A stretch of DNA of 64,000 bases from Burkholderia sp. WP9 (GTDB taxonomy: Bacteria; Pseudomonadota; Gammaproteobacteria; Burkholderiales; Burkholderiaceae), in the NCBI RefSeq assembly GCF_900104795.1, contig NZ_FNTG01000002.1:744001-808000 (forward strand), read 5' to 3'. This document shows positions 20,280 to 44,699 of this stretch, in pieces; the first letter of the stretch is position 1, and each line of letters starts with the position of its first letter. The translations under genes were made by a program, and so were the position numbers. The notes under the pieces were generated by a model that was not told the origin of the DNA, did not search any database, and saw only the letters and a list, made by a program, of their open reading frames with translations.

Positions 20280-20299
20280 TACTGTACATCTATACAGTA
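20280..20299. promoter_or_regulatory. LexA box (SOS operator)
   Basis: TACTGTACATCTATACAGTA is an extended palindrome around CTGT-N8-ACAG (20282-20297), matching the gamma/beta-proteobacterial LexA consensus. It lies 54 bp before the UdgX gene start, where it would cover the promoter. A box with 19 of 20 identical bases occurs at 34439-34458. Confidence 0.88.
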
Positions 20300-33510: not shown

Positions 33511-34149
33511 CTAGCCACGCGCGGCAATCGACTCGCAGTACTCCAATGCATCATCCAGCCGGTCGTTGCCCCAGAACATTTCATCGCCGACAAAAAACGT
33601 CGGGGCGCCGAAAATGCCGCGCGCCGCGGCCGCCGAGGTCTGCTCACGCAGGCGCAGTTTGTTCGCGTCGCTTTGCGCTTCGGTGATGATCTGCCGGGCC
33701 GGCAATCCCAGTTCCTCGAGCGCCTCGCTCACCACCTCCATCGAGCCGATGTCGCGGTCATGCGCGAAGTTCAGTTGCATGATCTGGCGACAGTACGCCG
33801 CGATCCATTCGCGCTCCGCGCCGAGCAGCGCCACGCGCATGGCGAGGAGCGCCGCACGTGGGAACGTGCTGGGACGCTTCAGCGGGATGCCATATTTGCG
33901 GCATTGCCGTTCCATGTCCTTCCATATGTACGCGCCCTTCTCCTTCTGCAGCACGAACGGTGAATTGTCGAAACCGAGATCGCGGAAAACAGGCCCCAGC
34001 AAGAATGGACGCCAGCCGATTCGCACGCCCCTTGCTGCAGCCAGAGCCTCGATGCGCATCACGCTGAGGTAGCTGTAGTTACTGCCGAAGTCGAACCAGA
34101 ACTCGATTTCCGGTGCGCGCGTGATCGCGCGAGATGCGACATCGCTCAT
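33511..34149 (-). CDS. 2-hydroxychromene-2-carboxylate isomerase family protein (DsbA fold)
   Basis: A 212-residue glutathione-dependent thioredoxin-fold isomerase. FWFDFGSNYSYLSV near the N-terminus carries the active Ser region, with WRPFLLGPVFRDLG, RQCRKYGIPLKRP, and the C-terminal cis-Pro segment ARGIFGAPTFFVGDEMFWGNDRLD. The family acts in naphthalene-type aromatic degradation or general GSH chemistry. No aromatic-degradation genes are next to it, so the substrate is open. The start (MSDVASRAIT) has GGAGAGG upstream. Confidence 0.9.
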   Translation of the reverse strand: MSDVASRAITRAPEIEFWFDFGSNYSYLSVMRIEALAAARGVRIGWRPFLLGPVFRDLGFDNSPFVLQKEKGAYIWKDMERQCRKYGIPLKRPSTFPRAALLAMRVALLGAEREWIAAYCRQIMQLNFAHDRDIGSMEVVSEALEELGLPARQIITEAQSDANKLRLREQTSAAAARGIFGAPTFFVGDEMFWGNDRLDDALEYCESIAARG

Positions 34150-34280
34150 GTTTACCTCTCCGATCGTATGCAGACGCATGGCGCCCACCCGCGCCCCACG
34201 TCTTGCAAAGCTTAACAGTCGCCCGGCGCGCTTATCCCTATGATGGCCCTACAACCCGCCACGTCAGATGGTCATACACC

Positions 34281-34364
34281 ATGCGCTATCCCTACGACAT
34301 TCTTACTGCCACGTGTCTTTTCATCATCGTGGTCTCCACGTCCATCATGCTCGCGCTGTGTTGA
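34281..34364 (+). CDS. Candidate 27-residue membrane peptide
   Basis: ATG CGC TAT CCC to TGA encodes MRYPYDILTATC followed by a hydrophobic stretch ending MLALC, a plausible single membrane helix. It is just upstream of the SOS box at 34441. No good ribosome site is visible and no family is recognised, so this is a weak prediction. Confidence 0.25.
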   Translation: MRYPYDILTATCLFIIVVSTSIMLALC

Positions 34365-34438
34365 ACACTTGAGCCGCCTCGCGCGGAGGAAGTGAACCTG
34401 CGAACGCGCTCTACGTGCGTTCGTAAAAAGACGGGATA

Positions 34439-34458
34439 TACTGTACATATATACAGTA
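34439..34458. promoter_or_regulatory. LexA box (SOS operator), second copy
   Basis: TACTGTACATATATACAGTA contains CTGT-N8-ACAG at 34441-34456 and differs by one base from the box before the UdgX fusion. It overlaps a TATACT -10-like hexamer (34437-34442) and ends about 16 bp before the next gene's ATG, so LexA binding should block that promoter. Confidence 0.88.
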
Positions 34459-34474
34459 CTTTTTCGTCTGAGCA

Positions 34475-34843
34475 ATGCGTCTTCCACCCTTCGATCCGCC
34501 CACGCTCGCCGAACTGCGCGGTTGGTGGCGCACGCGCGACGAGCAGGCCGTTCAGCGGCTCATCCTCGAAATCCAGCGGCAGCGGCTTACGCTGCTGGAG
34601 CTGCGCAACCTGATCGACTGCGGCGTCCAGCAAGCTCGCGCAGCGGACCGCGCGCTGGTAGAACGCGGCGAACCGTTAATGACACTGCGCATCAGGATCG
34701 CTCAGGAAGTGCTGCGTGTGGGCGATATCGACGACACGCGGCAGATGAGCCGCGCCGCACAGGAAAGACTTGCGGTTCGCACCGAAGGTCAGATGGAATA
34801 CGCGCGCGAAGGCCGTCTCAGGCGACAGCGCCGCAACATCTAG
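34475..34843 (+). CDS. Unrecognised 122-residue protein under LexA control
   Basis: I recognise no family. The protein starts MRLPPFDPPTLAELRGWW and is strongly charged and helical. A possible first helix bundle (DEQAVQRLILEIQRQRLTLLELRNLIDCGVQQARAADRAL) is followed by RIRIAQEVLRVGDIDDTRQ and a basic tail ending RRQRRNI, which could bind nucleic acid or a repair protein. A near-perfect LexA box sits about 16 bp upstream, so induction by DNA damage is expected. The ribosome site is weak. It is a single-gene unit; the next plus-strand gene is over 800 bp away. Confidence 0.7.
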   Translation: MRLPPFDPPTLAELRGWWRTRDEQAVQRLILEIQRQRLTLLELRNLIDCGVQQARAADRALVERGEPLMTLRIRIAQEVLRVGDIDDTRQMSRAAQERLAVRTEGQMEYAREGRLRRQRRNI

Positions 34844-34900
34844 TCAGAGCGCGGTGCCCACTCTCCTGTCGTGACGGCGCGAAACAAGCGCGCGCATCGT

Positions 34901-35527
34901 TCAACGCGTTTGTGTCGCCACGCGCAGGCCAAGCGAAATGAACAGCACGCCGATAATCTTGTTCTGCCAGCGCGTCAACCAGGTCAGGCGCCTGACGAGT
35001 TTGCCCAGCGGACGAATGGTCAATACGATCAGCGTCGTATAAAGCGCACTCATGCCGACAAAGATTAGCCCGAGCGCGGTGAATTGCAGAAACGTGGAGC
35101 CGTGTTCGGGATGAACGAACTGCGGCAGGAACGCGAGAAAAAATAGCGCCGTTTTGGGATTCAGCACTTCGGCGGGAATGGCCTGAAAGAACGCCTTCGA
35201 GGCCGACACCGGCGCCACCGCCGGCATATGCGCACTCGCCTGCTTCTCGCGCAATGCACGAATGCCCAGATAGACGAGGTAGGCCGCGCCGACGAACTTC
35301 ACCGCGTTGAACGCGAGCGCGGAAGTCATCAGCAGCGCCGAGAGGCCGACCGATGCACCCAGCGCATGAATGAAATCACCCACCGCGATACCGAGGCCGG
35401 TGAGAATGCCGGCCTTGCGACCGCCATGCACGGTGCGCGTCAAAACCAGCAGCACGGCAGGACCCGGAATCAGAAAGAGCCCGAGTACGACGGCAACGAA
35501 AGTCCCCAACGTGGATAGGTCAAGCAT
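34901..35527 (-). CDS. LysE/RhtB family amino acid exporter
   Basis: A 208-residue inner-membrane protein with six hydrophobic segments. It has the N-terminal GLFLIPGPAVLLVLTRTVHGGRKAG signature, AFNAVKFVGAAYLVYLGIRALR and NPKTALFFLAFLPQFV, all typical of RhtB/LysE exporters of amino acids such as homoserine, threonine or leucine. The substrate cannot be told. AAGGAG precedes the ATG. A second family member at 37676-38296 is broken by a stop codon. Confidence 0.92.
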   Translation of the reverse strand: MLDLSTLGTFVAVVLGLFLIPGPAVLLVLTRTVHGGRKAGILTGLGIAVGDFIHALGASVGLSALLMTSALAFNAVKFVGAAYLVYLGIRALREKQASAHMPAVAPVSASKAFFQAIPAEVLNPKTALFFLAFLPQFVHPEHGSTFLQFTALGLIFVGMSALYTTLIVLTIRPLGKLVRRLTWLTRWQNKIIGVLFISLGLRVATQTR

Positions 35528-35713
35528 GCTGTCTCCTTGATGACGCGCTGATTGTCGCGGACGACCGCGTGGCGTTCAGCGAAAGATTGTAGACGAATGC
35601 GTGCAATTCGATTGATGCGCGGCGCGGAGGCGGCAGACCACGGCGACAATGACCGTGCTCTACGCGCGAATGCATGGCAGGCCGAATCCGTCCGCAGCCG
35701 CCGATCCGTTACC

Positions 35714-43235: not shown

Positions 43236-44699
43236 CATCTCGTTATACAGAAGTGTCATAGCCGTCGCGCAAGATCTGTATGGTGATCACAGCATCCATA
43301 ACTCGCTGCATGCCAATCCATAGCGTCTTCGCGCCTGGTTCGCCGTCGTTCTTGCGCCCGAGAAATCCGCCCAGTGAGCCGACCATCCGTATCATCTGGT
43401 TGAGCGTCGGCGGTTTTTTGGGACGCGCTTTCTTACAGAGCACATGGGCGCCGTGTATCTCGTCAGCCGCAAAGAACAGCGACGCGTCCAACTCCGGACA
43501 GGTCCTGCCCACACGCATGAGCCGCGCGATACGCCACGATACGACCATGTACAGCACGAGCGCCTTTTCTACCCGCTCCATCTGTGAGAGTTGCAGTGCC
43601 TCGACCCCGCAGGCGTTCTTCAGGACGTTGAAGAACATTTCTATTTCCCACCTCGCGCGGTACCAGTCAACGAGTTCGATGAGGGCATGCGCATCACCTG
43701 CTTCGCGGTTGGTCACAAGACGCCAGATAACGGGCTTCACACCCGCTGGCGCATCCACTTCATACGCCTCGACGCAGGTGAGCTTGACACCGGCACGCCC
43801 GGGCAGCGTGACGCGCTGGCTACGCAGTTCCTGCCTCACTTCACGCGCCTTCTGGCCGCTGCGCCCGGGCAGCACGAAGCTGATGTGGCCGAGTACCCTG
43901 CTGGCGTGCACCGTCTCCCACAAACTTGCTTCGCCCTTGAGCGCGCGATTGTGTTGCGAGCGCATCAGCCAGTCCGCCGGTTCACCCAGTTCCTGCGCAC
44001 GCTGCATGAGCGCGGCGATGTCGCCTTCACGATCGGCCACATACACCAGCCGCGTGTCAGGCAGGGCCCGTGCCTGTTCGGCCACGATCTCATAGCTTTC
44101 GATCCACCGCGCACTTTCCTTAACGCCCCCACGCTTGCCGTTTGCATCGCGTGGTTCGCGCGCCCACATCCATGCGTTCATCACACCCAGCGGCTCCCGA
44201 TCCGGTGTCACCGCATAGGTCGCGTGAAGATACATGCCCACCTGTGCTTCATAACAGAGCGGGCCAGCCCCTTCGATATCCTGACCGTTAAAGTTCAGCT
44301 CTGTCGTATCGGCAATGCACAGCACCACCGGCAACTGCCCCATGCGTGCCGTGGTACGGTCCCAATGCGGCTGCATCATGTCGCGCCAGTCGATGTGCTC
44401 ATTGCCCAAAAAGCGATATGCAGCGATCGTCTCTGACCAGCCTTCGCACGCGCCCGGAATGCTAGCCGTGGGTCGGCTGGCGAACCGTTTGACCAGCTCC
44501 TTCGCGCGCCGGTCTCGCCGTGGATCACCCAGATCCAGCGTCTCAAATTCCTCGTCCACCCATGCTCCTGCGTCGTCTCGGATCTTCATGCTGAAAATCC
44601 GAGAGTAAACGCGAAATCCGCACAGTTAACAACCCCCTTGCGGCTAATTTTTTACTCCACCATCCTTGCCGCAAGTGTCGAGTTGTGTATAAAGAGATG
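43236..44699. mobile_element. IS4-family, IS50 (Tn5)-group insertion sequence, complete, 1,464 bp
   Basis: The ends are 19-bp imperfect inverted repeats: left CATCTCGTTATACAGAAGT and right (reverse strand) CATCTCTTTATACACAACT, close to the Tn5 outer end. A perfect 9-bp duplication flanks the element. One leftward transposase gene fills it and its stop codon lies within the left inverted repeat, as in IS50. Intact ends and a perfect duplication indicate a recent insertion. It is inserted in the coding sequence of a GT25 gene. Confidence 0.95.
43243..44589 (-). CDS. IS50/Tn5-like DDE transposase
   Basis: A 448-residue transposase, somewhat shorter than Tn5 Tnp (476). Catalytic residues by motif are Asp94 (CIADTTEL), Asp186 (VADREGD) and Glu317 in the IS4 signature Y310-x2-R313-x3-E317-x6-K324 (WYRARWEIEMFFNVLK). 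The N-terminal GDPRRDRRAKELVKRFASRPTASIPGACEGWSETIAAYRFLGNE is the IS50-group DNA-binding start. The frame is full length with no internal stop, so it is probably active. Confidence 0.96.
   Translation of the reverse strand: MKIRDDAGAWVDEEFETLDLGDPRRDRRAKELVKRFASRPTASIPGACEGWSETIAAYRFLGNEHIDWRDMMQPHWDRTTARMGQLPVVLCIADTTELNFNGQDIEGAGPLCYEAQVGMYLHATYAVTPDREPLGVMNAWMWAREPRDANGKRGGVKESARWIESYEIVAEQARALPDTRLVYVADREGDIAALMQRAQELGEPADWLMRSQHNRALKGEASLWETVHASRVLGHISFVLPGRSGQKAREVRQELRSQRVTLPGRAGVKLTCVEAYEVDAPAGVKPVIWRLVTNREAGDAHALIELVDWYRARWEIEMFFNVLKNACGVEALQLSQMERVEKALVLYMVVSWRIARLMRVGRTCPELDASLFFAADEIHGAHVLCKKARPKKPPTLNQMIRMVGSLGGFLGRKNDGEPGAKTLWIGMQRVMDAVITIQILRDGYDTSV

What the first reader, a model, noticed from the sequence alone, without database searches (positions are those of the whole stretch)
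34439..34843. Uncharacterised 122-aa gene with a near-perfect LexA box: candidate new SOS gene
Seen: TACTGTACATATATACAGTA directly upstream of the start, overlapping a -10-like TATACT and differing by one base from the box of the UdgX fusion at 20280. The protein (charged, helical, basic tail) matches no family I know. Tight LexA control of a single-gene unit suggests a DNA-damage function such as repair, replication arrest or division control.
Basis: partly seen in the sequence, partly recalled or inferred. Interest (0 to 1): 0.8.

Follow-up and report, generated by a model that had tools for sequence, protein, structure and literature searches.

The report
Phage-derived SOS gene with LexA switch
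A small unnamed gene in this bacterium sits behind a textbook DNA-damage switch, and its relatives in viruses, prophages and plasmids carry the same switch, so it looks like a virus gene that the bacterium took over for its DNA-damage response; what the protein does is still unknown.

Summary
TACTGTACATATATACAGTA lies at 34439-34458, 16 bp before a 122-aa ORF (34475-34843), beyond chance. The gene is under purifying selection (median dN/dS 0.086, 30 sequences). It has no Pfam, NCBIfam or PADLOC match; its N-domain matches unnamed phrog_17852. Relatives lie in Burkholderia phages Mana and Magia, prophages and plasmids, often divergent from SRAP, a D12 methylase or DUF72 (35 loci, box upstream in 32). 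The window gene groups with P2-type prophage genes; 11 gene-less sites lack the box. Best reading: a phage-born, LexA-controlled SOS protein family fixed in the chromosome; its biochemical action is inferred. Side result: an ISCsp2-like IS1595 element whose 20 distinct outer flanks read N8-ACAG (19) or N8-ACAA (1), i.e. LexA boxes; one copy split this gene's box in P. phenoliruptrix.

The parts
34439..34458 (+). LexA box (near-palindrome CTGT-N8-ACAG with TA/TA flanks)
   Evidence: perfect CTGT-N8-ACAG before 24 of 28 orthologue loci
34437..34442 (+). -10-like TATACT overlapping the LexA box by two bases
   Evidence: TATACTGT-N8-ACAG kept in 26 of 30; no full sigma-70 consensus promoter found
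34429..34469 (.). outer inverted repeat AGACG (34429-34433) / CGTCT (34465-34469) around the box; role unknown
   Evidence: single-strand fold z -3.04; the AAAAAGACG and CGTCTG stretches recur in most of the aligned upstream regions
34475..34843 (+). 122-aa SOS gene, the finding
   Evidence: median dN/dS 0.086 over 435 pairs of 30 sequences
34475..34732 (+). conserved helical N-domain (residues 1-86; family core around F6, P9, E13-L14, R28-L-I-L-E32, R37, R81)
   Evidence: phrog_17852 match to residues 1-86; alignments A1-A4; AlphaFold2 helices 11-20, 24-57, 67-82
34733..34840 (+). variable C-terminal helix ending in a basic tail (RLRRQRRNI)
   Evidence: low pLDDT 60-73 and helix 93-120; R-rich ends also in some relatives
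33511..34188 (-). left neighbour (isomerase/DsbA-like by my reading), marks the left side of the insertion site
34901..35527 (-). right neighbour (LysE-like by my reading), next to the gene in 29 of 30 orthologue loci
   Evidence: gene-less sites
20280..20299 (+). second LexA box of the window, before the UdgX-fusion gene (comparison)

Best explanation
The gene is a single-gene SOS unit. LexA sits on the operator that overlaps the -10 region and blocks transcription; on DNA damage RecA-stimulated LexA cleavage releases it (established pathway; LexA binding here is inferred from the conserved operator). The product is the chromosomal form of a Burkholderiaceae family of small helical proteins that phages, prophages and plasmids keep behind LexA boxes, often facing SRAP, a D12 adenine methylase or DUF72 across the same box. 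A prophage copy, with its box, became fixed at one chromosomal site in a clade of Paraburkholderia. Shown: the box, its conservation, the family, the contexts, the selection, the fixed site. Inferred: the protein has no enzyme-like signature that I could find and its invariant core is shared by members in very different elements, so I think it is a protein-binding accessory factor that acts on conserved host damage machinery (for example the RecA filament, SSB or a stalled replisome) during SOS, rather than an enzyme or an element-specific regulator.
For: Box conservation: 24 of 28 orthologue loci; 56 of 70 family ORFs in other Burkholderiaceae genomes; 63 of 82 loci with 1.97 boxes/kb near the gene against 0.018/kb far from it; a box also on a P. 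syringae plasmid 28 bp before the start. Purifying selection. Phages Mana and Magia carry a member with a perfect box between it and SRAP; membership holds with a profile built without phage or plasmid rows (E 6e-14 and 2e-14 against 584 sequences). Divergent SRAP/methylase/DUF72 in 35 loci, 25/7/3, with a box upstream in 32. Sister sequences of the window clade are L134/L230, which has P2-type portal, terminase and head genes beside it, and L076/L231 with a phage-type integrase about 7 kb away. Same site in all orthologues examined: LysE-like neighbour in 29 of 30. Filled and empty sites: 15 loci with the gene (14 with box), 11 clean sites with neither. AlphaFold2 model all-helical, pLDDT 79.4.
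Against: No LexA binding or induction data. The target is not identified: fold searches give only generic helical matches. 19 of 82 relatives lack a perfect box within 350 bp. The window copy itself has no SRAP, methylase or DUF72 beside it. The tree is one FastTree run, midpoint-rooted, support values not examined. Two Paraburkholderia species have lost the box to a group II intron, one to an IS and one seems deleted, so the gene is dispensable there. Shared invariant residues could reflect the fold alone.
Confidence: 0.5

Rival explanations
1. It is a LexA-controlled prophage antirepressor of the Tum/GfoA type: when LexA is cleaved, the small helical protein binds a phage repressor and induces the prophage; the window copy is an orphan that induces resident prophages in trans.
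For: LexA-controlled small antirepressors outside the immunity region are established for Gifsy phages, 186 Tum and N15 AntC (PMC3121763, passages). Relatives are small, LexA-boxed and lie in temperate phages. In the P2-type prophage L230 the gene is next to the portal gene; from memory only, this resembles the place of the SOS operon in phage 186.
Against: Window copies are fixed without a prophage beside them and under purifying selection. The core residues are shared across quite different elements, whereas antirepressors usually fit one repressor. Tum has a DinI-like half; no Pfam match at all is seen here. Some members are on plasmids.
Confidence: 0.25
2. It is an SOS-induced growth or division inhibitor (SulA/SidA-like in role), with the basic tail contacting a membrane or nucleic acid.
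For: Single-gene LexA units often encode such proteins (recalled); basic tail.
Against: No transmembrane-like stretch in the sequence by eye; no match to any division-inhibitor family in Pfam or NCBIfam; tail not conserved across the family.
Confidence: 0.12
3. It serves the mobile element only (a moron gene that shields damaged phage DNA together with SRAP) and the chromosomal copies are relics.
For: SRAP, methylase and DUF72 partners; broken or lost copies in some species.
Against: dN/dS 0.086 and 53 of 86 invariant N-domain residues over 30 orthologues; chromosomal fixation seen in two separate clades of the tree.
Confidence: 0.1
4. The ORF is not a gene and the box serves nothing.
For: No Pfam or NCBIfam match; no clear Shine-Dalgarno motif by eye.
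Against: Strong codon-level conservation in 30 sequences; 163 homologous proteins in the protein search.
Confidence: 0.01

Closest known systems
phrog_17852 (PHROGs v4, unknown function)
   Same: N-domain of the window protein matches profile 1-86 of 213 at E 1e-18; 20 of 21 family members match at E up to 0.1; the 215-residue two-domain form matches over nearly the whole profile, E 1.7e-85.
   Different: The profile is the two-domain form; the window gene has one domain plus its own tail. Phage Mana's member gives no match and Magia's only E 0.065.
LexA-controlled prophage antirepressors (186 Tum, Gifsy GfoA/GftA, N15 AntC; PMC3121763, passages read)
   Same: Small, LexA-controlled, carried by temperate phages.
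   Different: No DinI-like part and no sequence match; window copy is not in a prophage; repressor binding untested.
SRAP / YedK / HMCES (PMC3765255, passages read)
   Same: Recurrent divergent partner, sharing the LexA box region; that paper already notes SRAP in proteobacterial prophages, naming one from B. thailandensis.
   Different: Different protein; in the passages I saw the small partner is not described.
hypA / hypB, predicted LexA-regulated hypothetical genes of beta-Proteobacteria (PMC3323433, passages read)
   Same: Same kind of prediction in the same group of bacteria; hypB is said to be exclusive to Burkholderia in the old sense.
   Different: Their identity is in a figure not held here. 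Another LexA-boxed gene of this genome, DUF2471, found in 31 of 80 Burkholderiaceae genomes, is at least as good a candidate. Overlap with this family is unresolved.

Membership tests
LexA/SOS regulon | LexA-type operator upstream | tested here: met
LexA/SOS regulon | operator conserved in orthologues | tested here: met
   24 of 28 loci; the other 4 are two intron insertions, one IS insertion and one truncated copy
LexA/SOS regulon | operator overlaps the promoter | tested here: inconclusive
   TATACT overlaps, 26 of 30, but no full consensus promoter
LexA/SOS regulon | LexA binding and damage induction | not testable with these tools
   needs bench work
phrog_17852 | profile match | tested here: met
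   E 1e-18, residues 1-86, about 40% of the profile
Tum/GfoA-type antirepressors | LexA-controlled gene of a temperate phage | tested here: inconclusive
   met for relatives; the window copy lies among ordinary chromosomal genes by my reading
Tum/GfoA-type antirepressors | DinI-like part (Tum) | tested here: not met
   no Pfam match for the window protein at E up to 10; no DinI among the Pfam families matched by 21 members
Tum/GfoA-type antirepressors | binds a phage repressor | not testable with these tools
   -
anti-phage defence proteins in PADLOC | profile match | tested here: not met
   0 families for 5 members
known folds in the PDB | structural match | tested here: inconclusive

The most novel reading that the evidence does not exclude
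An undescribed family of SOS proteins, born in phages, pairs with SRAP or a D12 methylase across one shared LexA operator, acts on a conserved host target in the damage response, and has been taken into host chromosomes at least twice (the one-domain Paraburkholderia gene of the window and a two-domain gene in another genus), each time keeping a LexA operator.
Probability: 0.35. Interest if true: 0.75.

Novelty: new variant of a known kind. Interest (0 to 1): 0.6.

Why it matters
Parts of the SOS regulon that differ between clades are mostly unnamed small genes. This one comes with unusually strong comparative evidence for LexA control, a traceable mobile-element origin and a named recurrent partner (SRAP), so its role becomes testable with simple deletions and expression. 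It also suggests that prophages feed SOS effectors to their hosts. The side finding, an IS1595-family element that inserts into LexA boxes, would if confirmed be a natural detector of LexA operators and a way to break SOS control gene by gene.

Tried and rejected
Structure: two AlphaFold2 models (pLDDT 79.4 and 65.8), Foldseek against PDB and viral libraries and VIA-align gave only generic helical matches; a sequence search of the PDB gave one weak match, E 0.053. The window protein found nothing in the phage collection by tblastn, nor did L086's protein; L083's protein found phages Mana and Magia weakly (E 0.02), which I then checked with a profile built without them. Viral-contig scan with L081's protein: no relative; with L086's: five loci.

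Distribution outside the family: 3 of 349 Burkholderiales-level and 3 of 398 phylum-level genomes matched, the window's genome included, and all three were Burkholderiaceae. These searches scored only about 10 candidates per large genome, so the absence is weak.

A first box-frequency control (27 of 230 other ORFs with a box within 350 bp) was confounded, because divergent neighbours share the box region, which counts positions, replaces it. It left out the window-clade orthologues and one of 83 loci in which no domain was found.

A hidden RNA at the locus: no Rfam match at E up to 0.1 in 33800-35600. The third CTGT-N8-ACAG of the window (44242) was not followed.

Literature: 10 searches. Searches gave no paper whose listing or passages named this gene. 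Searches gave no paper whose title or listed abstract reports LexA-box targeting by an IS; none of these papers was opened, the held library is partial, and ISfinder was not searched. PMC10710452: passages only, no gene list.

Full report
1. The observation. The box TACTGTACATATATACAGTA is at 34439-34458 and ends 16 bp before the ATG of a 122-aa ORF, 34475-34843. CTGT-N8-ACAG is found three times in the window, 0.44 expected; the full 20-mer with up to three mismatches is not expected at all. In the whole genome a stricter form gives 15 sites against 3 for a reversed control. By my reading of the ORFs beside them these sites lie before lexA (two boxes), two imuA-like genes, alkB, a radical-SAM gene and the UdgX fusion (NCBIfam TIGR03914 over cut-off); the imuA-like site at C1:729879 has the same 18 central bases as the finding. 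So the box is of the genome's own LexA type. A TATACT overlaps it by two bases and is kept in 26 of 30 orthologues, but a consensus scan sees no complete promoter.

2. Is the box conserved? In 28 orthologue loci from named Paraburkholderia and Burkholderia genomes, 24 have a perfect CTGT-N8-ACAG, about 35 bp before the start. The four exceptions are informative. Two (P. domus L010, P. haematera L014) carry the 3' end of a group II intron (Rfam RF00029, 66 bits) exactly behind the box position. One (P. phenoliruptrix L021) has an IS end that replaces the first half-site. One (L028) matches only from residue 33, and seems to be deleted through the box. The coding sequence is under purifying selection: median dN/dS 0.086 over 435 pairs of 30 sequences, 53 of the first 86 residues invariant.

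3. A family, not a single gene. Within the genus 44 of 97 genomes have a match, 21 of them close orthologues (84-100%), the others diverged. With a profile, 56 of 249 Burkholderiaceae genomes in 9 of 25 genera match. Of 70 family ORFs in the loci of that search, 56 have a perfect box within 350 bp upstream. A position-based count over 82 loci of diverged relatives finds 64 boxes in 32.5 kb beside the gene and 6 in 340.8 kb elsewhere, a hundredfold difference; 63 of 82 loci have one. 19 loci have none within 350 bp. The family has no Pfam match for the window protein, only scattered weak ones among 21 members, and no NCBIfam or PADLOC match for the members tested. phrog_17852 (unknown function) corresponds to a two-domain form, the 215-residue L123 protein (E 1.7e-85); the window protein matches its first 86 positions.

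4. Where the relatives live. Two isolated phages carry a member: Burkholderia phage Mana (Peduoviridae) and phage Magia. In each an annotated SOS-response-associated peptidase (SRAP) is divergent, and a perfect box lies between the two genes. The first hits were weak (E 0.02), but a profile built only from bacterial-genome members gives E 6e-14 and 2e-14 in a search of 584 sequences. Over the loci fetched, 35 have SRAP (25), a D12 adenine methylase (7) or DUF72 (3) divergent within 700 bp, and 32 of these have a perfect box within 700 bp upstream of the family gene (126 family loci were examined, among them the window-clade orthologues, which have none of these partners). One representative of each of the methylase and DUF72 neighbours and two of the SRAPs were confirmed with Pfam; the rest were assigned by tblastn. 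On a Paraburkholderia plasmid the neighbours are SRAP and AlkB. On a P. syringae pv. pisi plasmid the gene also has a perfect box 28 bp before its start.

5. Origin of the window copy. In a tree of 112 distinct domain sequences the window clade groups with L076 and L134, then with methylase-linked members (one FastTree run, midpoint root, support not examined). L134/L230 has portal, large and small terminase and major head genes of P2 type directly beside it; L076/L231 has a phage-type integrase about 7 kb away. Two genomes (G073, G246) hold both the fixed copy and such a prophage-type copy. The window copies sit at one site: the LysE-like neighbour is next to them in 29 of 30 loci. In 30 loci fetched with that neighbour from 77 genomes (33 matched), 15 have the gene (14 with a box), 11 have the two neighbours 6-278 bp apart with neither gene nor box, one has a box and a C-terminal remnant, one has a box but no gene, and two lack the left neighbour. 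The box therefore comes and goes with the gene. The two-domain form of genus g12 is another set without a phage neighbour in the stretches seen, and its sisters in the tree are SRAP-linked, so chromosomal fixation may have happened twice.

6. How it works. Shown: a conserved LexA operator, a selected protein, a mobile family with one kind of control. From established knowledge: LexA cleavage would switch it on after DNA damage. Inferred: the AlphaFold2 model is all-helical (helices 11-20, 24-57, 67-82, 93-120; pLDDT 79.4, the tail lower), no fold match stands out, and the invariant residues lie mainly in helix 24-57. I read it as a protein-binding accessory factor that acts on conserved host damage machinery. 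An antirepressor of the Tum/GfoA type (PMC3121763, passages) is the main rival; the authors of the SRAP paper (PMC3765255, passages) suggested that phage SRAP acts as a damage sensor and switch for lysis, which would fit either reading.

7. What is known. A 2012 comparative study predicted two LexA-regulated hypothetical genes in beta-Proteobacteria, hypA and hypB (PMC3323433, passages). The figure that names them is not held. DUF2471, LexA-boxed in this genome too and present in 31 of 80 Burkholderiaceae genomes, is a competing candidate. I therefore do not claim that LexA control of every family member is unreported.

8. A side result. The IS end that split the box of L021 also split that of a diverged relative (L084). 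A search for it in 94 Paraburkholderia genomes gave 20 sites in 6 genomes. All 20 distinct outer flanks read N8-ACAG (19) or N8-ACAA (1). Eight copies with both ends, five here (1063-1078 bp) and three in another genus (1090 bp), have an 8-bp duplication that equals the spacer of CTGT-N8-ACAG; one has TTGT on one side. The transposase is IS1595-type (PF12762, PF12760) and its closest named relatives on plasmids are annotated ISCsp2. Downstream ORFs look like dinB, imuA, uvrA, uvrD and family members (my reading). An Enterobacter plasmid copy sits in CTGG-N8-ACAG in a mercury-resistance region, so the element may read the DNA motif rather than bound LexA. Against it: most of the other, more distant IS1595 relatives fetched, including the one of 51% identity in the window's genome, showed no such flanks by the same test, a 69% relative (L200) has both half-sites but unequal 8-mers, and the plasmid copies L238 and L239 were not resolved.

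Noticed in passing
L176, L178, L179, L184, L188 (Paraburkholderia genomes), L201, L212, L217 (another genus), L021, L084: An ISCsp2-like IS1595-family element inserts inside LexA boxes: 8 of 8 two-ended copies have an 8-bp duplication equal to the spacer of CTGT-N8-ACAG (one with TTGT on one side), and 20 of 20 distinct outer flanks in 6 genomes read N8-ACAG (19) or N8-ACAA (1). More distant relatives mostly do not show this.
   Followed up: partly
L010:34-110 and L014:34-110: The 3' end of a group II intron (Rfam RF00029, 66 bits) lies directly behind the position of the LexA box of the finding's orthologue in P. domus and P. haematera.
   Followed up: partly
L241 (Enterobacter hormaechei plasmid): An IS1595 copy in CTGG-N8-ACAG with an 8-bp duplication in a mercury-resistance region, so the target may be the DNA motif and not LexA itself.
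   Followed up: partly
G000:C1:783123 (L062) and G000:C2:1837913 (L068): Two more unnamed genes of this genome sit behind perfect LexA boxes: a 71-76-aa ORF without Pfam or NCBIfam match, and a DUF2471 protein.
   Followed up: partly
L079:3619-4722: Two family copies in a row on one strand beside SRAP; a LexA box before the first only.
   Followed up: no
L096:808-1275, L097:5803-6258, L111-L116: Phage Mana and Magia type members carry about 70 extra N-terminal residues (KPxWAYIWEY...) before the family domain; function unknown.
   Followed up: no
L117-L124, L135-L137, L141, also L127, L128, L131, L146: Proteins with two tandem family domains (about 215 aa) in genus g12, most behind a LexA box.
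   Followed up: partly
window 34429-34469: An outer inverted repeat AGACG/CGTCT surrounds the LexA dyad, and both arms recur in most orthologue upstream regions.
   Followed up: no
window 44242-44257: A third CTGT-N8-ACAG match (CTGTGCTTCATAACAG) without the AT-rich spacer; possibly chance.
   Followed up: no
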